The notes under the pieces: model-generated
Told to the model about the DNA's origin: nothing
Database searches by the model: none
What the model saw: only the letters and a program-made list of their open reading frames with translations
Part shown: one piece after another, positions 16,485 to 58,587 of the stretch
Layout: each line of letters starts with the position of its first letter
Position numbering within the stretch: the stretch's first letter is position 1
Translations under genes and position numbers: made by a program
From: Gammaproteobacteria bacterium
Lineage (GTDB): Bacteria; Pseudomonadota; Gammaproteobacteria; Xanthomonadales; Marinicellaceae
Direction of reading: 5' to 3'
Assembly: GCA_030430025.1 (NCBI GenBank)
Contig: JAUIGR010000013.1
Coordinates: 1 to 64,000, forward strand
Length of the DNA stretch: 64,000 bases

Positions 16485-16877
16485 TCATGCTGCGTGATCA
16501 AAATTTTCTTTTTTATGAGTTTCCGCATTTTTCAAGGATTTGATGTTGTTTTGGCTATCAACAAACACCAGATGTGGCTGATGGGTTTTTGCTTCTTCAG
16601 CATCAACCAAACAATAAGCGGCCAGAATCACTAAATCACCAGGCTGGTTGAGGCGTGCAGCAGCACCGTTCAGACAAATTTCACCTTTACCTCCTTCAAT
16701 CACGTATGTCGTTAAGCGTGAGCCTGAGTTGCAATTAAGAACATCAATTTGTTGATTAATTAGCAGGCCGGCAGCTTTAATTAAATCTGGACAGATAGAA
16801 ACAGAGCCTTCATAGTTTAAATTGGCATCGGTGACGGTGGCTCGGTGGATTTTGCTGTGTAACATGGTTAAATTCAT
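16485..16877 (-). CDS. panD: Aspartate 1-decarboxylase
   Basis: PanD makes beta-alanine from aspartate for pantothenate synthesis. It is a self-cleaving pyruvoyl enzyme; the cleavage site Gly-Ser is seen in NYEGSVSI. With the ATG at 16877 the Ser is residue 25, exactly as in E. coli, which favours this start; an ATG four codons upstream overlaps the coaX stop (ATGA). Other hallmarks are LHSKIHRATVT and NGAAARLNQPGDLVIL. It is the last gene of the operon. Confidence 0.95.
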   Translation of the reverse strand: MNLTMLHSKIHRATVTDANLNYEGSVSICPDLIKAAGLLINQQIDVLNCNSGSRLTTYVIEGGKGEICLNGAAARLNQPGDLVILAAYCLVDAEEAKTHQPHLVFVDSQNNIKSLKNAETHKKENFDHAA

Positions 16878-16885
16878 GGTAGTTC

Positions 16886-17668
16886 TCATTTGTTGTTTAT
16901 TTGATTGATTTTGTATGCAATGAACAGGCCTTTGAGGACCAAATCGGGCACAATGTGATCAAAAATATCGGAGTCTCTATAGATGCTGGTGAAACCACCT
17001 GTGCCAATGATCACAGGTTTGTTGCCTTTGAAATTTTGTTTGATTAGACCAGTCATAATTTCCTTCATGGCTCCCAAGACTCCAAAATAAAGACCTGATT
17101 GGATACTTTCGTTAGTGGTTTTGCCAAGTACTTGTTCTTTATTGATGATTTCGACAGCTCCCAGTTTAGAAGTTCCAGAGGCCAGTGCTTTCATAGACAT
17201 TTTCAGACCCGGTAAGATGACACCACCGAGGTAAACTTTGTTGCTGTTGATGGCACAGAAAGTAGTGGCAGTGCCTAAATCAATAACAATCGCATCTTGA
17301 TTGGGGTAAAGGTGTGTTACAGCTATGGCGTTTGCGATGCGATCGGCACCGACTTCTAGCGGGTTACGATAACCTATTTGCAAACCTGTTTTGACACCGG
17401 CTTGGAGGATGAATGGCTCGATACCAAAATATTTTTGGCAGCAGGCATTAATGGGATATTGAACTTCAGGTACTACTGAACATAACGCAATGGCATTGAT
17501 TCGTTCGGGAGTAATGTCATTCTCTCGTAAAACAGCACGCAGGAATACACCATATTCATCAGAAGACGCGCCAGTTTTTGAGGCCATGCGGAACTGAATC
17601 TGTAGCGTATCACCGTCAAACACTCCACCGTGCATGTGACTGTTTCCAATGTCAAGACATAATATCAT
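16886..17668 (-). CDS. coaX: Type III pantothenate kinase
   Basis: CoaX phosphorylates pantothenate, the first committed step to CoA. The 260-residue protein shows the type III signatures: N-terminal LCLDIGNSHMHGG, the GADRIANAIA segment, DLGTATTFCAI and IIGTGGFTS. Type III kinases are not inhibited by CoA and are unrelated in fold to CoaA. The start overlaps the coaB stop by 4 bases (ATGA). Confidence 0.95.
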   Translation of the reverse strand: MILCLDIGNSHMHGGVFDGDTLQIQFRMASKTGASSDEYGVFLRAVLRENDITPERINAIALCSVVPEVQYPINACCQKYFGIEPFILQAGVKTGLQIGYRNPLEVGADRIANAIAVTHLYPNQDAIVIDLGTATTFCAINSNKVYLGGVILPGLKMSMKALASGTSKLGAVEIINKEQVLGKTTNESIQSGLYFGVLGAMKEIMTGLIKQNFKGNKPVIIGTGGFTSIYRDSDIFDHIVPDLVLKGLFIAYKINQINNK

Positions 17669-18327
17669 GCGGCTTGCTCTTGTTGTTGCAAGACTTGGTC
17701 ACACATGGCTTCAGGTGATGAGCATGGAATGACCTTACCGTTGCGATGATATAAGTTCAAAGGGTGTTGATCGTTGGTGATTTCTGGTAGGTTGTTTTGT
17801 GCCACATAATCGACCACACCGTGACTGAACAGTTTGTCCACTGCTGATTTGATGTGTTTGGAGCATTGGGTGTTGGTTAATTTAAAGCCGACCAATAACA
17901 AGTTGGGATTAATCGACCAAGTTTTGATGTGGTCAATCAGTTTGGGGTTACGCTCTAGGCATATTTTCATGTCATTAACTGTTGAAATTTTGCAGTTTCT
18001 GTCAGCCGTAACCAGTACATCATTAAACATCACACCTGTGACCTTAAAATCACTGACAGCAGCGGCATGAAACACTACATCATAGTGCCATTTTGAAAGG
18101 CTTCTTTTAAGGGCTTTGTGCAAATCACCATAGGTTTCAAAAGCAAGTTGTTCTTTTGAAATTTTTGGTCTAACAGCGTCTTTGGCTCCCAGCCAGGTTA
18201 CGTGATGTCCTTTGGAGCTCAAATGTTCAGCCAGTTGAGCTCCAGTACGACCGCTACTGCAATTGCCAATGTAACGAACGCCATCGATGTATTCTCGAGT
18301 ACCTCCGGCAGTGATTAAAATATTCAT
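17665..18327 (-). CDS. coaB: Stand-alone phosphopantothenate-cysteine ligase
   Basis: The 220-residue protein corresponds to the C-terminal DFP half of the usual CoaBC fusion. N-terminal ITAGGTREYIDGVRYIGN and SSGRTGAQLAEHL form the nucleotide-binding region. FHAAAVSDFKV is the conserved active-site region, with a Lys in the expected place. It joins cysteine to 4-phosphopantothenate with a nucleotide triphosphate. It overlaps coaC by 4 bases and coaX by 4. A separate CoaB is unusual in gammaproteobacteria, which mostly fuse it to CoaC. Confidence 0.88.
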   Translation of the reverse strand: MNILITAGGTREYIDGVRYIGNCSSGRTGAQLAEHLSSKGHHVTWLGAKDAVRPKISKEQLAFETYGDLHKALKRSLSKWHYDVVFHAAAVSDFKVTGVMFNDVLVTADRNCKISTVNDMKICLERNPKLIDHIKTWSINPNLLLVGFKLTNTQCSKHIKSAVDKLFSHGVVDYVAQNNLPEITNDQHPLNLYHRNGKVIPCSSPEAMCDQVLQQQEQAA

Positions 18328-18854
18328 GATAGTTGCTCCACAAATTCTAAAATATCGGTCACTTCTGGCATCCTTCCTTCTCCCTGCTCACCACAGGCTA
18401 GGTTACCTTTAGCTATTGGCATCACTTTCACATTCCAATTGGCCAACTGCTTTATTGATGACTGGGTCGCAGGGTACTGCCACATCATGCTGTTCATGGC
18501 AGGAACGATGATCATTGGCTTACCGAGACCATAAGCAGCAATCCAGGTTGTGGTGATGACATCATCTGCGATACCACGGGCTATTTTATTAATGACATTT
18601 GCGGAGGCCGGACAGAGGATGATCTGGTCGGCCCAACGACTGTGATGGATATGGTCCATCATCGCTCCGGGCTCAAATGTGTCCGTCATCACAGGTCTTT
18701 GGCTCAATCCTTCTAGAGTAGCCAGCCCCAGAAACTCAAATACCGATTTTGATGTGATTATCTGAACGACATCCCCTTGTTTTGTCCATTCAGAGATCAG
18801 GCCAGTGGCTTTAGCGCAAGCAATCGAGCCAGTCATTAATAACAGTCGGTTCAT
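18324..18854 (-). CDS. coaC: Stand-alone phosphopantothenoylcysteine decarboxylase
   Basis: The 176-residue flavoprotein matches the N-terminal half of CoaBC. MTGSIACAKA opens the FMN-binding fold, DHIHHSRWAD contains the catalytic His, PAMNSMMW is the conserved substrate clamp and ACGEQGEGRM carries the catalytic Cys. It decarboxylates phosphopantothenoylcysteine to 4-phosphopantetheine. The gene starts 4 bases inside panC and ends 4 bases inside coaB, so the two halves are translated separately but adjacently. Confidence 0.9.
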   Translation of the reverse strand: MNRLLLMTGSIACAKATGLISEWTKQGDVVQIITSKSVFEFLGLATLEGLSQRPVMTDTFEPGAMMDHIHHSRWADQIILCPASANVINKIARGIADDVITTTWIAAYGLGKPMIIVPAMNSMMWQYPATQSSIKQLANWNVKVMPIAKGNLACGEQGEGRMPEVTDILEFVEQLS

Positions 18855-19618
18855 GCGACCTCCCTGGAATTAAAAGGTACATTGTCAATTAACCTGACTT
18901 TGCCCAAAGTGGCAGCAACATACAAACGGTCATCAATTATGGTCAGGTAGTCAACAATAAAGCCGAGCTGACTCAGCTGTTGTTTCATTTGCTCAAGTGG
19001 TAAGTCCGAAGTCAAAATGGCATACAAAGCAGGAGCAATAGCACGTTGTTCATTGGTTAAACGAAGGTTTCTTGAACTCATAGCCAATCCATCTGCCTCC
19101 CGGATAGTGGGACAAGGAACAATAACAATGTCCAGAAAAAATGCTTCAACCATGCCCTGTATTAGTTGCAGTTGTTGTTGATCTTTTTCGCCAAAGTAAG
19201 CTTTAGTTGGCTTAACTAAATTGAATAGTTTCATTACCACCGACAGCACACCGTCAAAATGGCCAGGTCGATGTTGGCCACATAAATTCTTACTTAAACT
19301 GTTCTCACAGACTTGATAGCGGTAGTTATCAGGATAGAGTTGCTCAAAGCCAGGTAAAAACACCGCGTCGACACCAATTGCTTTAAGGGCTGCGATATCA
19401 ACATCATGGGTTTTGGGGTATTGTTCCAAGTCACTGGTCTGATCAAACTGGGTTGGGTTGATGAAAATGCTGACCAAAACCGTTCGGCAATTTTGCTGGG
19501 CTGCCCTAACTAATGATAAATGACCTTGATGCAAGGCCCCCATTGTAGGAACAAAACCAACATCAGTTTGTTGCACTCTCCAGTCCTTCAAAGCCGCCAA
19601 GTCTTTGATGATGTTCAT
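18851..19618 (-). CDS. panC: Pantothenate synthetase
   Basis: PanC condenses pantoate and beta-alanine using ATP. Visible motifs are VPTMGALHQGHLSLV (the HxGH adenylation signature), SIFINPTQF, FGEKDQQQLQLI and SSRNLRLT. The 255-residue length is slightly short of E. coli PanC. It overlaps panB and coaC by 4 bases each. Confidence 0.96.
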   Translation of the reverse strand: MNIIKDLAALKDWRVQQTDVGFVPTMGALHQGHLSLVRAAQQNCRTVLVSIFINPTQFDQTSDLEQYPKTHDVDIAALKAIGVDAVFLPGFEQLYPDNYRYQVCENSLSKNLCGQHRPGHFDGVLSVVMKLFNLVKPTKAYFGEKDQQQLQLIQGMVEAFFLDIVIVPCPTIREADGLAMSSRNLRLTNEQRAIAPALYAILTSDLPLEQMKQQLSQLGFIVDYLTIIDDRLYVAATLGKVRLIDNVPFNSREVA

Positions 19619-20400
19619 CGATAAAACTCCTGATGGTTGGGAAAGTCACCTTTTTTGACATCCTCAGTGAATTGATTAAAGGCGTTTTTAAACAAGCTGG
19701 TGGCGTCCAGATATTTGCGAACAAACTTTGGGCTGAACTTCGATGGGTATCCTAACAAGTCATGCATCACCAGCACTTGACCATCGGTATCCGCCCCTGC
19801 ACCAATGCCGATGGTCATGATATCGCTGGCATTAACAATTCGAGTGGTCAAAGCTGCGGGTATACACTCAAGCACCACGGCAAAAGCGCCCAAATCTTGT
19901 AACTGTTTGACAGCGTTAACAATGGCAGCCGCTGCATGTTCATCACGACCTTGTATCTTAAACTCCCCAAACTGGTTGATGGATTGAGGAGTCAAACCAA
20001 CATGACCCATTACTGGCACACCTGACTGAACAATGTGCTTAATCAGTGATTCATTGCCTGACACGCCTTCGAGTTTAATGGCGTGAGCACCTGCTTTCAT
20101 TAAGGACTCAACAGCCATCATGTTACTGTCCAGTGATTTACGAAATGACAAAAATGGCATGTCTGCAACGATGAACTTATCTGGTGCTCCTTTGACAACA
20201 GCCTTGGTGTGCAAGGCCATGATTTCAGTGTTGATAGGTAATGTTGAGGTTTCTCCATGCATCACCATGGCTGCTGAATCCCCAACCAAAATCATATCGA
20301 TATCACTCTGATTGATGATGGTGGCAGAAGCAAAGTCGTAGCAAGTGACTATTGCCAGTTTCTCTTTTTGTCTTTTTTCTAACAGTTCATTGATGTTCAT
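19615..20400 (-). CDS. panB: 3-methyl-2-oxobutanoate hydroxymethyltransferase
   Basis: PanB adds a hydroxymethyl group to ketoisovalerate to make ketopantoate. Motifs include IVTCYDFASA, LVGDSAAMV, ADMPFLSF, GHVGLTPQSI and VLECIPA with the catalytic Glu. The ATG at 20400 overlaps the preceding stop (ATGA) and matches the usual N-terminus, so the reading frame extension to 20439 is not used. About 261 residues. Confidence 0.96.
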   Translation of the reverse strand: MNINELLEKRQKEKLAIVTCYDFASATIINQSDIDMILVGDSAAMVMHGETSTLPINTEIMALHTKAVVKGAPDKFIVADMPFLSFRKSLDSNMMAVESLMKAGAHAIKLEGVSGNESLIKHIVQSGVPVMGHVGLTPQSINQFGEFKIQGRDEHAAAAIVNAVKQLQDLGAFAVVLECIPAALTTRIVNASDIMTIGIGAGADTDGQVLVMHDLLGYPSKFSPKFVRKYLDATSLFKNAFNQFTEDVKKGDFPNHQEFYR

Positions 20401-21143
20401 TGGATTGCCTGTGATGCTGTTTTGTGGATATTTTGCCAATCAACAAATGCCTGATAAATGGGGCCCAGTTCATTGCTGTTCATAGCATGTAAGTGGTTGA
20501 TGATGGTTTGGTGATCGTTGCGAACAAAGGGACCCGTTAAGGCTGTTTCAGGGGAGTTGATGAAATTATCGACGACTTGTTTAAGATATGGATTCATCAA
20601 GGTTTGAGGCAAATCGATAGTTTGTAGCTGATTAATGATCGCTTGCCACAGCATTTGTGGGAAATTACCAGCCATCACACACAAGGCGTGATAGGCTGTT
20701 TTGTTGTTCGTGCTGATATGGTAATAAGGATTGTTCAACTTAGGAAAAATTTGGTCAAATAACATTCCTTTTTGACAAACGAAAGGAACCTGTTGATAAG
20801 TTTCCAGATCATAAAGCTGTTCACCAAAAGTCATCAATGGGTGGCATGATTGGGCTTGAGGTATGTGTAAAGCACCAGAAAAATGGATCAGTTGATGATT
20901 TTCCAGTTCAGGGTGTTGTGAGATGAAAGAGGCAATGGCATCATCTTTGATTAACAGCAAGACATGGTCAGAGTTTTTGAGGACTTGTGTTAATGACGGG
21001 TCTGAGAATATAGCCAGTTTGTCATGCCGATACCACCTATTGTAAGTGACATCAAGCAAATCAAAGTAATGTGCTACGTGATGTGCCATGTGACCATTGC
21101 CAATAAGGCAATAGCGCGGGGGTACCTGTCGATTCACAATCAA
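20397..21143 (-). CDS. panG: Rossmann/DUF2520 protein, candidate PanG-type ketopantoate reductase
   Basis: The 248-residue protein has an N-terminal Rossmann motif (IGNGHMAHHVA, about residues 14-24). A segment HFSGALHIP then CHPLMTFG follows, and a C-terminal helical domain whose ALTGPFVRNDHQTIINHL is the DUF2520 signature. Family knowledge: a protein of this kind, PanG, was shown to be a ketopantoate reductase in Francisella. Here it is first in an operon holding panB, panC, coaC, coaB, coaX and panD and no PanE, so it should supply the missing reduction of ketopantoate to pantoate. The specific symbol is inferred from family and position. Confidence 0.75.
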   Translation of the reverse strand: MIVNRQVPPRYCLIGNGHMAHHVAHYFDLLDVTYNRWYRHDKLAIFSDPSLTQVLKNSDHVLLLIKDDAIASFISQHPELENHQLIHFSGALHIPQAQSCHPLMTFGEQLYDLETYQQVPFVCQKGMLFDQIFPKLNNPYYHISTNNKTAYHALCVMAGNFPQMLWQAIINQLQTIDLPQTLMNPYLKQVVDNFINSPETALTGPFVRNDHQTIINHLHAMNSNELGPIYQAFVDWQNIHKTASQAIQ

Positions 21144-21275
21144 GTCCTCATTAATACTTACTTTATTCAGGTTTTGGGGTTACCCACCTGACCAGTCACT
21201 GTTCACGAGAATCAGTGCTGTTTACAATTATAAGGGTAATTATCTGAATATCAAATGAAGTCGTTTTAATTGGTA

Positions 21276-54418: not shown

Positions 54419-55069
54419 TTATCCACGTGAACGGGCAAAGACCAGAGCAGTCACTTGTCTGACTCCGTTTTGTTTTAATGCTTTTGCGCAAGCACGTAAT
54501 GTCTGGCCTGTGGTCAAGACGTCATCCACTAGCAAAATACGATCAGCATCTAAGGGTTTTAAACAACCAAAGGCACCAGATACATTATTTTTCCTTTGTT
54601 TTGCTCTCAGTGCTGCTTGCATTTGAGTATTTTTTGGGCGAAAAAGTACATCGGTGATTAATTTTCGATTTTCAGCTTTAGCAATACTTTGAGCAATCAT
54701 TGCCGCTTGATTATAGCCACGTAATAATAAACGACGTGGGTGTAACGGGACAGGAATTAAGGGTACCTCAACAGCTATGCTACTAAGCAGAGGAATCAGT
54801 GAATCTGCCATTAACTGCGCAGCGGATAATTGTTGTCCAAATTTCAATTGATGAACCCAACGATCAACCGGGTATTGATAAAGGGTAGCATAGATTACTG
54901 TGTCGAATTCTGGTGGTGAAGTCATGCATTCGCCACATTGGGTGGCGTCAGTATTTGGCAGTGGTTTACCACATTGATAACAGCGGTAAGTTGGTTTAAT
55001 CATCAGTTGATGACAATCCTGACAAAGTGCTTGTTCCGCAGGACTTTGGCAGACAGTGCATCGTAACAT
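54419..55069 (-). CDS. comF: ComF family phosphoribosyltransferase-like protein
   Basis: The 216-residue protein has an N-terminal set of four Cys pairs (CTVC, CQDC, CYQC, CGEC) likely binding zinc, and a phosphoribosyltransferase domain with the PRPP loop ILLVDDVLTTGQT. ComF proteins take part in natural transformation in some bacteria; the catalytic role is unknown. It starts right at the smc stop. Confidence 0.9.
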   Translation of the reverse strand: MLRCTVCQSPAEQALCQDCHQLMIKPTYRCYQCGKPLPNTDATQCGECMTSPPEFDTVIYATLYQYPVDRWVHQLKFGQQLSAAQLMADSLIPLLSSIAVEVPLIPVPLHPRRLLLRGYNQAAMIAQSIAKAENRKLITDVLFRPKNTQMQAALRAKQRKNNVSGAFGCLKPLDADRILLVDDVLTTGQTLRACAKALKQNGVRQVTALVFARSRG

Positions 55070-58000
55070 TAATCTTGAGCCAATTGCGCTGCTTCAGCCA
55101 GATCGACACTAACTAAACGAGAAACACCGGCTTCACGCATTGTGACACCCATTAGCTGATGAGCAATTTCCATGGTGACCTTGTTATGGGAGACGAATAA
55201 AAATTGCACTTTTTCTGACATTTCTGCAACCATAGCTGAAAAACGACCTACATTGGCATCATCCAATGGTGCATCAACCTCATCTAACAAACAGAAAGGT
55301 GCTGGATTAAGATTAAATATAGCAAAAACCAAAGAGACTGCAGTCAGGGCTTTTTCCCCACCTGATAGTAACTGAATGGAAGAAACACGTTTGCCAGGGG
55401 GTCTTGCCATAATAGCGACGCCAGTAGTCAATAAGTCATTACCAGTTAATTCCAGATAAGCATGGCCACCACCAAACAATCTTGGGAATAGTTGTTTGAT
55501 GTTGCTATTGACAGTTTCAAATGTTTCTTTGAATAGCGTTCGAGTATCTTTATCAATCTTAGCAATGGCGCCTTCCAATGTCGATAGTGCTGCCTCTAAG
55601 TCATCATTTTGTTCATCCAAATAGGCCTTACGTTTGGACTCTTCTTCAAATTCCTCAATCGCAGCCAAATTCACAGGCTCTAATCGGATGATGCTGTGAT
55701 TTAGCCTTTCGACCTGTTCTTCTTTGCTTTCAATTTGTTGATTGATGTCTTGCGAGAGGTTGTCGGCTTCTTCCATGTCTTCAATCATTTGGGCCGCGTG
55801 AAATCCTTGGTCTTGCAGCTGCTCGTAGAAAGCAGTGGCTTTCATTTGGTTAGACTGTGTAGTGAGGTTGGCTTGTTCCAATGCAGATCGGGCATTATCT
55901 ATCCGTGACTGGTGATCGCTTCGGGCACGTTCCAGTGTGTCCAGTTCCAATTGAGAAGCAACCACAGCCTCACGCTTTTTATCACGGGCTTTTTCTGTTT
56001 CAATGCGTTCAATGATTAATTGTTCCAGTTGTTTCTGTTTCCCCGATAGTGGGTCTAGATCTTGGCTCATCTGTTTTAGCAGTTGATCTTTTCGTGTCAT
56101 GGATTGTGCCAGATTGTCTTGCGTTCTGGCCATGCTTTGTTGCAAAGCTTGCGCCTTATTTTCATGTGAGGACAGACCGATTTTTTGTTGATAGTATTGA
56201 TTCGATTTATCGTTCAACTGAGATTTGGATTGTTGGTACTGTTGTTGAATACCCTGTTGTTTTTGTTGTAATTGCTGTTTAGTGATTTCTAAAGAGGCAA
56301 TGGCATTCATCGCTTTTTCAAGCTGTCCACGTGACTCTTTGATGGCTGCTTCATCTTGTTCCAGTGCCCCAGCTATTTGTTGGTACTCTGCTGATTTTTG
56401 TTCTGCTTGTTTGAGTAATTGTTCAATGGTTTGTTGCTTGTTCAGTAGTAGACCGCTGAGTTCGGAAAGTTTTCGATGAGACATGTTCACATCCAATTGC
56501 AACTGCTCTATTTGGGCTTGTTGCTTCAGTTGCGTTGCCTTGTTGTTTTCAAAATTTTGCTGGGTTTCTGTTAAGGTCTGCTCATTGATTTCGATGTTCT
56601 GTTCTAATATTCTCAGTTCCTTCTGTCGAAGTAGAAAGCTATTTTCATGCTGTCCTATGTTCAAATGTAACCAGTGTCGATTAAGCCAGTGTCCATCAGG
56701 GGTTACCACGGATTCACCGGCTGTCAGCTGAGTGGCCATTTGTTGTGCCTGGTCAAGGTCATTGCAAATACGAATGTTGTTGAACCAGTCCAAAACAGCA
56801 TCAGGTGCTTTAACACATTCGGCCAGAGTGCCGGTTCGAGGTGCCAGTTGTCCTCTGTCTGCACGAATGGTGGTGGTCGCACCAAATGACCAATTTGCCA
56901 TCACATCTTGCCAGTTGGTTTCATTGGTAACCAGAGCTTGTAATCGTTCTTGTAACACGGTTTCCACTGCCAGTTCCCAACCAACCTCCACTTCAATCAA
57001 ATCTGACAACCTTTCACTCAGTAGTTTCGGATTGGATTCAATCCAAGTTTTCAGTTCGGGGTTATCTTTGGCTTGAGCGGCTTGCTGTAAGGCCAATAGT
57101 GAACCACGTTTACCCTTAGCCTGATGGAGTTGTTCTTGACAGTCGTTGATGGCTTGTCTTAGCAACAGTCCTTCAGCTTCATTGTCATGTTGAGCTGATT
57201 TGGCGGCTTTGAGAGCGGTTTCCAATTCTTCATGCTTGTTTTGTTGTTGCTCATTTTGTTTCTGAATATGTTTTAGTTCTGTATTCAGTTGTGACATTTC
57301 ACCATCATCATTTTTAGGCTGTACTTTTTGCAATCGTTCAGATAGTCGCATGACTTGATTTTCTAAAGATTGGATTCGGGTTTGTTCTACTTCAGCGATT
57401 CTCTTTTGTTCATTCAATACGGTTGTGTTTTCTTCCCATAAACGCCGCCAGTCCTCCATATGTGTTTCACTTTCACTGTGGAGCGTTTGTACCGACTCTA
57501 ATTCCAGTTCCAAAGCTTCCATTTCTGGTTTTAAGGATTCAATGGCCATTTGTTGTTCCTTAAACTGTAATTGGTCTTGTTGCAATTGTCTGTTCGCTTG
57601 AGAAATGTTGGTTTCTGTCTGTTCCAGGTCTCGTTTATGTCGTTCTGAAAGCGCTTGAGAGTGGGCAATGGTTTGTTCAATTTTACCGATTTCACTGTTG
57701 ATTAGATAAAGGTGTTCTTGCACTTTGTTACCGGCATCTACTAGGTTTTGGTGAGTAGTCCGCTTGGTCTCAATATTTTTTTCACTGTCTGTTTGTCCAG
57801 ACCTTGCTTGTTCAAGTGCTGTTTTTAATTGAGCTACCTGATTTTTACAGGTTTCCGCTTGTTGGTTCCATTGATACCAGCGTAAAGCCAAAACCTCTGC
57901 TTTTAAAACTTTAAATTGATCTTTGAGTTTTTTGTAACGTTCGGCATTTTTTGCCTGTCTTTGCAGGTGTTGTAGGTGTTTACCCACCTCTGTACGTAGG

Positions 58001-58587
58001 TCATCCAGACGTTCCAAATTTTCACGTGTTCGTTGGATGCGTCGTTCGGTTTCACGACGACGGTCGCGGTATTTGGAAACACCGGCAGCTTCTTCAATAT
58101 AGCCACGTAGATCCTCTGGCTTAGACTCAACAATGTTGGAAATCATACCCTGCTCAATGATCGAGTAGGATCTGGGACCTAACCCGGTGCCCAAAAACAA
58201 GTCAACGATATCTTTTTTGCGACATTTGTTGTTATTTAGGAAGTAGAATGATTGGGCATCTCGATTAACTTGCCGTTTGACAGAAATCTCGTTGTAGTTG
58301 GCATACGCTCCTCCGACCTGACCATCAGAATTGTCGAAGATAAGTTCAACTGTCGCCAAGCCAACAGGTTTTCGAGATGCTGATCCGGAAAAAATCACAT
58401 CGGTCATGGATGCGCCACGGAGCATTTTAGCTGAGGTTTCTCCCATCACCCAACGCACCGCATCAATGATATTTGATTTACCACAGCCGTTGGGTCCAAC
58501 CACTCCGATAAGATTACTGGGTAGCAATACTTCAGTTGGATCTACAAAGGACTTAAATCCTGCTATTTTGATTTTCGATAACCGCAT
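55069..58587 (-). CDS. smc: Chromosome segregation protein SMC
   Basis: The 1172-residue SMC ATPase has an N-terminal Walker A GPNGCGKSN, long coiled coils of about 170-490 and 680-1000 around a hinge (about 500-680), and a C-terminal ABC signature LLSGGEKALTA with Walker B CLLDEVDAPLDD. It organises and condenses chromosomes, normally with ScpA and ScpB, absent here. The presence of SMC rather than MukB is informative for lineage. Confidence 0.97.
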   Translation of the reverse strand: MRLSKIKIAGFKSFVDPTEVLLPSNLIGVVGPNGCGKSNIIDAVRWVMGETSAKMLRGASMTDVIFSGSASRKPVGLATVELIFDNSDGQVGGAYANYNEISVKRQVNRDAQSFYFLNNNKCRKKDIVDLFLGTGLGPRSYSIIEQGMISNIVESKPEDLRGYIEEAAGVSKYRDRRRETERRIQRTRENLERLDDLRTEVGKHLQHLQRQAKNAERYKKLKDQFKVLKAEVLALRWYQWNQQAETCKNQVAQLKTALEQARSGQTDSEKNIETKRTTHQNLVDAGNKVQEHLYLINSEIGKIEQTIAHSQALSERHKRDLEQTETNISQANRQLQQDQLQFKEQQMAIESLKPEMEALELELESVQTLHSESETHMEDWRRLWEENTTVLNEQKRIAEVEQTRIQSLENQVMRLSERLQKVQPKNDDGEMSQLNTELKHIQKQNEQQQNKHEELETALKAAKSAQHDNEAEGLLLRQAINDCQEQLHQAKGKRGSLLALQQAAQAKDNPELKTWIESNPKLLSERLSDLIEVEVGWELAVETVLQERLQALVTNETNWQDVMANWSFGATTTIRADRGQLAPRTGTLAECVKAPDAVLDWFNNIRICNDLDQAQQMATQLTAGESVVTPDGHWLNRHWLHLNIGQHENSFLLRQKELRILEQNIEINEQTLTETQQNFENNKATQLKQQAQIEQLQLDVNMSHRKLSELSGLLLNKQQTIEQLLKQAEQKSAEYQQIAGALEQDEAAIKESRGQLEKAMNAIASLEITKQQLQQKQQGIQQQYQQSKSQLNDKSNQYYQQKIGLSSHENKAQALQQSMARTQDNLAQSMTRKDQLLKQMSQDLDPLSGKQKQLEQLIIERIETEKARDKKREAVVASQLELDTLERARSDHQSRIDNARSALEQANLTTQSNQMKATAFYEQLQDQGFHAAQMIEDMEEADNLSQDINQQIESKEEQVERLNHSIIRLEPVNLAAIEEFEEESKRKAYLDEQNDDLEAALSTLEGAIAKIDKDTRTLFKETFETVNSNIKQLFPRLFGGGHAYLELTGNDLLTTGVAIMARPPGKRVSSIQLLSGGEKALTAVSLVFAIFNLNPAPFCLLDEVDAPLDDANVGRFSAMVAEMSEKVQFLFVSHNKVTMEIAHQLMGVTMREAGVSRLVSVDLAEAAQLAQD

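What the first reader, a model, noticed from the sequence alone, without database searches (positions are those of the whole stretch)
16485..21143. Complete pantothenate-to-phosphopantetheine operon with DUF2520 reductase and split coaC/coaB
Seven genes with overlaps of 4 bases run DUF2520-panB-panC-coaC-coaB-coaX-panD. PanE and the fused CoaBC, normal in gammaproteobacteria, are both replaced. A DUF2520-like protein, PanG, is a ketopantoate reductase in Francisella. Here the operon context predicts the same role and covers every step to 4-phosphopantetheine.
Basis: partly seen in the sequence, partly recalled or inferred. Interest (0 to 1): 0.6.

Follow-up and report, generated by a model that had tools for sequence, protein, structure and literature searches.

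The report
Complete vitamin B5-to-phosphopantetheine gene cluster
A marine Marinicella bacterium keeps seven coenzyme A precursor genes in one tight row, with an already described substitute for the usual ketopantoate reductase and with a normally fused two-in-one enzyme cut back into two genes; this is a tidy variant of known biology, not a new system.

Summary
The seven-gene operon is real: DUF2520/panG-panB-panC-coaC-coaB-coaX-panD, minus strand, 16485-21143, all six junctions 4-base ATGA overlaps. By its relatives the genome is a Marinicella. No panE, ilvC or fused coaBC reaches its cut-off in the genome and ilvD gives no match. The DUF2520 protein is therefore the best candidate ketopantoate reductase, as published for Francisella PanG. 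In the 33 genomes held of its family, the 25 with DUF2520 are exactly the 25 with panC. The other half needs correcting: coaBC was not replaced. Sister genera carry the operon with coaBC fused in the same slot, and the Marinicella split genes are sister to those fused ones in a tree: in-place fission, with at least one other origin of the split elsewhere (single origin rejected, p 3e-26). CoaB of this operon is streptococcal-like, fused or split. Against exclusivity: in the order sample 14 of 42 panC+ genomes without panE or ilvC also lack DUF2520.

The parts
20397..21143 (-). panG: Rossmann + DUF2520 protein, predicted NADPH-dependent ketopantoate reductase (likely start GTG at 21137)
   Evidence: PF10728 68.2 bits; only DUF2520 match in the genome; AlphaFold mean pLDDT 95.1; closest solved folds 3d1l and 2i76
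19615..20400 (-). panB: ketopantoate hydroxymethyltransferase
   Evidence: TIGR00222 285.6 bits, cut-off 207.55
18851..19618 (-). panC: pantothenate synthetase (C-terminal part short against the TIGR model)
   Evidence: TIGR00018 263.5 bits, cut-off 212.75, profile 1-211 of 283; PF02569 profile 7-267 of 268
18324..18854 (-). coaC: stand-alone phosphopantothenoylcysteine decarboxylase, the first half of a split coaBC
   Evidence: TIGR00521 positions 7-176, 150.7 bits; fused in sister genera
17665..18327 (-). coaB: stand-alone phosphopantothenate-cysteine ligase, the second half of a split coaBC, streptococcal-like
   Evidence: NF005231 125 bits, TIGR02114 115 bits, TIGR00521 positions 188-389 92 bits; best solved relative 2gk4
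16886..17668 (-). coaX: type III pantothenate kinase
   Evidence: TIGR00671 199.3 bits, cut-off 58.2; NF009855 315.5, cut-off 233
16485..16889 (-). panD: aspartate 1-decarboxylase
   Evidence: TIGR00223 148.3 bits, cut-off 106
21227..21254 (-). candidate sigma-70-type promoter TTGATA-16-TATAAT in the gap before panG
   Evidence: 11 of 12 matches, the best of the region; the number of such sites overall is not above shuffles, 10 against a mean of 11.4
18324..18327 (-). ATGA overlap at the coaC/coaB fission point
   Evidence: same 4-base overlap in 12 of 14 Marinicella-group loci read and in 6 of 9 split loci of other lineages

Best explanation
This is one transcription unit that makes 4'-phosphopantetheine from ketoisovalerate and aspartate. 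PanB makes ketopantoate; the DUF2520 protein (PanG) reduces it to pantoate with NADPH; PanD makes beta-alanine; PanC joins them to pantothenate; CoaX phosphorylates; CoaB adds cysteine; CoaC decarboxylates. Because the genome shows neither panE nor ilvC, PanG is its only ketopantoate reductase of a known type. Because ilvC and ilvD are both missing, ketoisovalerate is probably made from imported valine rather than de novo. CoaB and CoaC are the two halves of a formerly fused CoaBC that split in place at its interdomain linker in the Marinicella stem; the ATGA overlap couples their translation. Shown: gene identities, overlaps, absences at the stated thresholds, conservation, tree. Inferred: activity of PanG, its cofactor, co-transcription, valine as source, and coupling.
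For: Gene identities and overlaps. Own genome: best panE-model hit 28.7 bits against a cut-off of 141, best ilvC-model hit 23.7 against 226; the six ORFs scanned under the stronger weak hits are TrkA, GpsA, 3-hydroxyisobutyrate dehydrogenase, an SDR, AhcY and a hydroxyacid dehydrogenase; no ilvD match. The same models find panE over cut-off in 8, ilvC in 14, ilvD in 14 and CoaBC in 13 of 14 control genomes. Family of 33 genomes: DUF2520 in 25, panC in the same 25, neither in the other 8. Order sample of 200: among 181 panC+ genomes panE is over cut-off in 7 of 78 with DUF2520 and 62 of 103 without. In 78 of 80 named loci found by PanG alone, panB follows on the same strand, and in 25 of 80 all seven genes are present. 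Fission: fused coaBC over cut-off in all 7 panG+ genomes of sister genera g2 and g4, two separate halves in 18 of 18 of the own genus; Marinicella splits sister to four fused rows (19 rows 99/97), one origin of all splits rejected, p 3.2e-26. G15, G17, D67, H87, H101, H152, N160, R208 and D210 are identical in 66 of 66 aligned PanG sequences (65 of the 80 loci plus the window were aligned).
Against: No assay. 14 of 42 panC+ order genomes lacking panE and ilvC have no DUF2520 either, so some unlisted or very divergent reductase exists nearby. The genome is 97.5% complete in 114 contigs, so a missed panE or ilvC is possible. The own genome has 3-hydroxyisobutyrate dehydrogenase and a related hydroxyacid dehydrogenase that might moonlight. 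In the order sample only up to 10 candidates per genome were scored for panE and ilvC. The Marinicella split clade has 94/99 and 93/98 support, not starred. Fission rather than fusion depends on the fused lineages lying outside; the drawing was rooted at the midpoint. The Fisher p (2.8e-13) ignores relatedness.
Confidence: 0.87

Rival explanations
1. The DUF2520 protein is an oxidoreductase of another substrate (for example a hydroxyacid or imine) and ketopantoate is reduced by a moonlighting hydroxyacid dehydrogenase elsewhere in the genome.
For: The fold is shared with many NADP oxidoreductases: after 3d1l and 2i76 the best matches are prephenate dehydrogenase and imine reductases (Foldseek ranks pyrroline-5-carboxylate reductases next); the genome has 3-hydroxyisobutyrate dehydrogenase and a second hydroxyacid dehydrogenase; 14 of 42 panC+ panE- ilvC- genomes lack DUF2520.
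Against: panB adjacency in 78 of 80 loci, exact co-occurrence with panC in the family, and the function of the Francisella relative as stated in citing passages.
Confidence: 0.09
2. The split coaC and coaB were imported as separate streptococcal-type genes and replaced a fused coaBC.
For: CoaB scores higher with the stand-alone streptococcal-type models than with the fused model, and its best solved relative is 2gk4, which I recall as the Streptococcus pneumoniae protein.
Against: Five fused CoaBC of the same operon in other lineages have the same streptococcal-like CoaB domain; window CoaC is about 62% identical to the fused protein of sister genus g2 against 41% to the split one of L084; tree and AU test.
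Confidence: 0.04
3. The ATGA at coaC/coaB is an assembly error or a slippage site, and a fused CoaBC is made.
For: The two halves are adjacent with a 4-base overlap.
Against: Two separate ORFs in 18 of 18 genus genomes, one genome per species; the linker of fused relatives (8-12 residues in g2) is reduced to 0-7 residues at the end of CoaC.
Confidence: 0.03

Closest known systems
PanG of Francisella (FTT1388; Miller et al. 2013, J Bacteriol, not held; known here through passages of papers that cite it)
   Same: DUF2520-type protein serving as ketopantoate reductase in a genome without panE
   Different: Not compared letter by letter (no Francisella record in hand). Here it heads a seven-gene unit reaching phosphopantetheine in a marine genus.
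panB-panG-panC sets of Wolbachia wMeur1 and the cat-flea strain, and of Riesia (PMC9903615, passages and section 16 read)
   Same: panG together with panB and panC, horizontally acquired in Wolbachia
   Different: No coa genes are mentioned with them in the passages read; here the set runs on to coaC-coaB-coaX-panD.
Bifunctional CoaBC (TIGR00521)
   Same: Both domains present in the same order and slot; fused in sister genera
   Different: Two separate polypeptides here; divergent CoaB domain
Streptococcal stand-alone CoaB and CoaC (TIGR02114, TIGR02113)
   Same: Separate genes; CoaB shares the KIS and GFKL stretches with 2gk4
   Different: Below both curated cut-offs (115 of 217, 125 of 261); separate origin of the split is inferred, no streptococcal row was in the tree
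B. subtilis 'PanG' (YkpB; PMC11487621, passages read)
   Same: Name and reaction
   Different: That paper puts YkpB in the same orthologous group as PanE, and B. subtilis has no DUF2520 match among the controls: a name clash

Membership tests
PanG (DUF2520-type ketopantoate reductase) | DUF2520 domain over the Pfam gathering score | tested here: met
   68.2 bits, cut-off 25
PanG (DUF2520-type ketopantoate reductase) | N-terminal Rossmann domain with G-x-G | tested here: met
   G15 and G17 in 66 of 66 rows; fold model and matches to NADP oxidoreductases
PanG (DUF2520-type ketopantoate reductase) | Only ketopantoate reductase of a known type in its genome (no panE, no ilvC) | tested here: met
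   genome 97.5% complete
PanG (DUF2520-type ketopantoate reductase) | Orthology with Francisella FTT1388 by direct comparison | not tested
   No Francisella record was in hand; the link rests on a passage of PMC4572677, which lists FTT1388 as a homologue of a DUF2520 protein
PanG (DUF2520-type ketopantoate reductase) | NADPH-dependent reduction of ketopantoate | not testable with these tools
   needs an assay
PanE/ApbA (TIGR00745) | match to the PanE model | tested here: not met
   the DUF2520 protein has no NCBIfam family at 0.001; no place in the genome over the cut-off
CoaBC (TIGR00521) | both activities on one polypeptide, over 219.7 bits | tested here: not met
   two ORFs, 148.9 and 90 bits
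Streptococcal CoaB (TIGR02114) | curated cut-off 217.2 bits | tested here: not met
   115.3 bits
Streptococcal CoaC (TIGR02113) | curated cut-off 261.4 bits | tested here: not met
   125 bits
Type III pantothenate kinase (CoaX) | TIGR00671 cut-off 58.2 bits | tested here: met
   199.3 bits

The most novel reading that the evidence does not exclude
A self-contained CoA-precursor module, panG-panB-panC-coaBC-coaX-panD, with its own CoaBC subfamily (streptococcal-like CoaB, fused or split), moves between phyla as a unit; within it CoaBC has been split at least twice, usually ending in an ATGA overlap that keeps the halves translationally coupled; and when the whole module is lost, as apparently in 7 of 11 genomes of sister genus g2, the bacterium has no recognisable CoaBC and lives on imported pantetheine.
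Probability: 0.35. Interest if true: 0.5.

Novelty: new variant of a known kind. Interest (0 to 1): 0.35.

Why it matters
It offers a marine system outside the pathogens in which PanG is the only ketopantoate reductase of a known type, so the family could be studied there. It also gives an evolutionary series (fused and split CoaBC in the same operon slot, at least two origins of the split) for testing why two enzymes were ever fused. It corrects the idea that the split genes are a replacement.

Tried and rejected
Streptococcal replacement of coaBC: rejected by operon slot, identity and tree. Hidden panE or ilvC: six ORFs (L002, L003, L004, L008, L010, L013) under the 11 panE-model and 5 ilvC-model places were scanned and are other enzymes; the places not scanned all have E above 0.06. 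Exclusive dependence on DUF2520 in the whole order: not upheld, 14 of 42 exceptions. A structural match to PanE itself: none among the 50 rows shown by either fold search, which decides nothing; one ketol-acid reductoisomerase is Foldseek rank 50. Catalytic idea: the invariant His152 and Asn160 have the same spacing as Lys176 and Asn184 of E. coli PanE as I recall them; left as a lead, since no coordinates could be superposed. A literature search for CoaBC with 'gene fission' gave 0 papers and for Marinicella with pantothenate 3 papers, none on this subject by title and start of abstract. Phage records: no match to PanG; plasmid records: 3 distant matches of 24% identity, in Legionella, Arthrobacter and Monoglobus; panB or panC is not annotated beside it in the two with gene tables, and the Arthrobacter stretch carries no annotation. 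Rfam and tRNA scans of the window: nothing. Promoter-like sites: not above shuffles.
Full report
OBSERVATION. The window carries, on the minus strand from 21143 down to 16485, seven ORFs of 248, 261, 255, 176, 220, 260 and 134 residues. Pfam names them DUF2520, PanB, PanC, Flavoprotein, DFP, Pan_kinase and Asp_decarbox, all over the gathering score. All six junctions are 4-base ATGA overlaps. The gap of 132 bases before panG (21144-21275) holds an 11-of-12 promoter-like site at 21254-21227; such sites overall are not above shuffles. panG probably starts at GTG 21137, not TTG 21143.

ORGANISM. A scan of one genome per species with an alignment of 24 DUF2520 proteins returned, among the nearest relatives, Marinicella marina, litoralis, sediminis, meishanensis, gelatinilytica and pacifica. 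In the CoaC+CoaB tree the window row groups with two unnamed gammaproteobacterial bins and then with them. NCBI places the genus in Marinicellaceae, Lysobacterales, Gammaproteobacteria. The own genome has 3.08 Mb in 114 contigs, 97.5% complete. The species itself was not named by any search. The named loci and the unnamed relatives overlap, as several contig lengths coincide, so they are not independent samples; the tree used the named set only.

KETOPANTOATE REDUCTASE. In the own genome the PanE model reaches 28.7 bits against a cut-off of 141, the IlvC model 23.7 against 226, and IlvD gives no match. The same searches find panE over cut-off in 8, ilvC in 14 and ilvD in 14 of 14 control genomes. 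The six ORFs scanned under the stronger weak matches are TrkA, GpsA, 3-hydroxyisobutyrate dehydrogenase, an SDR, AhcY and a hydroxyacid dehydrogenase. DUF2520 occurs once. Of 18 genomes of the genus, 18 have DUF2520, 0 have a panE match at E 1e-15 (at most 10 candidates scored per genome) and 6 lack ilvC. In the family (33 genomes returned when 100 were asked for) DUF2520 and panC are present in the same 25 and absent from the same 8. In a sample of 200 genomes of the order, 80 have DUF2520, 70 panE over cut-off, 145 ilvC and 181 panC. Among the 181, panE is over cut-off in 7 of 78 with DUF2520 and 62 of 103 without (Fisher p 2.8e-13, relatedness ignored). Among 42 with panC but neither panE nor ilvC, 28 have DUF2520 and 14 do not. 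The 14 are unexplained and speak against DUF2520 as the only alternative.

GENOMIC CONTEXT. Of 131 relatives confirmed, the best 80 were kept. In 78 of 80 panB follows panG on the same strand, panC is present in 76, coaX in 60, coaC in 54, coaB in 52, panD in 34, and all seven in 25. Some contigs end early, so these are lower bounds. coaC and coaB on that strand are fused in 29 loci and split in 23. The record titles include Bdellovibrionota, Neomarinimicrobiota, Ignavibacterium, Riflebacteria, Thermoanaerobaculales, Acidobacteria and Coxiellaceae or Legionellales; many are metagenome bins whose names may be wrong. Of the five records titled Coxiellaceae or Legionellales, three (L138, L151, L165) have panG-panB-panC-panD-coaX without coaBC, and two (L153, L172) show panG-panB-panC only.

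STRUCTURE. The AlphaFold model of the panG product has mean pLDDT 95.1 and pTM 0.87. The nearest solved structures are 3d1l (Z 16.6, rmsd 3.3, 228 aligned) and 2i76 (Z 15.9, rmsd 3.1, 218 aligned), which also match the sequence profile at E 5e-23 and 3e-19 and are named only as a putative NADP oxidoreductase and a hypothetical protein. Prephenate dehydrogenase and imine reductases follow at Z 12-14. Eighteen positions are invariant in 66 sequences (the window and 65 of the 80 loci), among them His87, His101, His152, Asn160, Arg208 and Asp210; His152, Asn160, Arg208 and Asp210 recur in both solved relatives. My suggestion that His152 takes the place of the catalytic lysine of PanE is inference from recalled numbering.

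SPLIT coaC AND coaB. No fused coaBC is seen in the own genome: only the two halves, 148.9 and 90 bits, while the model is over cut-off in 13 of 14 controls. In the family all 18 genomes of the own genus have two separate halves, all 7 panG+ genomes of genera g2 and g4 have a fused gene over the cut-off, and G019 (g3, no panG) has a fused one of 350 bits. The fused gene sits in the same operon slot. Between the two domains the fused rows have 8-25 residues (8-12 in g2); the split CoaC of the Marinicella group ends 0-7 residues after the domain, and CoaB starts at once. The tree of 54 rows places the 15 Marinicella-group split rows together (94/99, not starred), sister to four fused rows (19 rows, 99/97), inside a larger set of fused rows. 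One origin for all 24 split rows is rejected, p 3.2e-26; one origin for the nine other split rows is not rejected, p 0.25 (without L169). So the Marinicella split is best read as local fission, with at least one further origin elsewhere. The junction is a 4-base ATGA overlap in 12 of 14 Marinicella-group loci (exceptions L106, L162), in the window, and in 6 of 9 other split loci (exceptions L147, L160, L173). CoaB of this operon resembles the streptococcal type whether split or fused: the five fused proteins scanned score 101-121 bits with NF005231 against 50 for the one canonical CoaBC scanned (L169), which scores 417 with TIGR00521 against 267-296 for the five. All stay below the streptococcal cut-offs.

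MECHANISM. Seven enzymes for seven steps, as in Best explanation. With ilvC and ilvD not found, ketoisovalerate must come from valine or another route; this is inferred and was not tested further (ilvE, transporters). CoaD and CoaE were not looked for.

KNOWN OR NEW. PanG as ketopantoate reductase is published (Miller et al. 2013; not held; its content is known here only from citing passages in PMC4494066, PMC4207893, PMC5449765 and PMC4572677, and from recall). panB-panG-panC sets are described for Wolbachia and Riesia (PMC9903615, passages and section 16). B. subtilis 'PanG' is put with PanE in one orthologous group, a name clash (PMC11487621, passages); that species has no DUF2520 match in the controls. 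The review PMC7770189 (passages) calls CoaBC fusion bacterial and separate genes eukaryotic. The in-place fission of coaBC was not found in print in the one search made for it. Verdict: a new variant of a known kind, modest interest.

Noticed in passing
family f1 genomes G028, G128, G143, G153, G167, G182, G187 (genus g2): Seven of 11 genomes of the sister genus lack DUF2520, panC and any CoaBC match at 1e-10 together, one of them given as 100% complete; the whole operon seems lost as a unit, which would leave no recognisable CoaBC.
   Followed up: partly
order sample: G014, G024, G026, G055, G059, G060, G075, G110, G116, G144, G146, G170, G184, G191: panC present but no panE, ilvC or DUF2520 match at the thresholds used: another or a very divergent ketopantoate reductase is implied.
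   Followed up: no
window 18851-19618: PanC is short (255 residues) and matches the TIGR model only to position 211 of 283; several same-genus genomes show the same.
   Followed up: no
order sample, 35 DUF2520 genomes left after the operon type was set apart (many of family f9): A longer DUF2520 type, about 290 residues in many rows, may also stand in for panE: 3 of 35 have panE over cut-off, and 18 of 35 have neither panE nor ilvC.
   Followed up: partly
L095:3986-4810: coaX appears as two ORFs in this metagenome bin, perhaps a sequencing frameshift.
   Followed up: no
window 55069-58587: Strong AT skew (-0.34) at 56-58 kb coincides with an SMC-like 1172-residue ORF (identified by eye from the translation); ordinary.
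   Followed up: yes
G019:C1:772273-773127: panE-like match with two in-frame TGA in a family member that lacks panC: a decayed gene perhaps.
   Followed up: no
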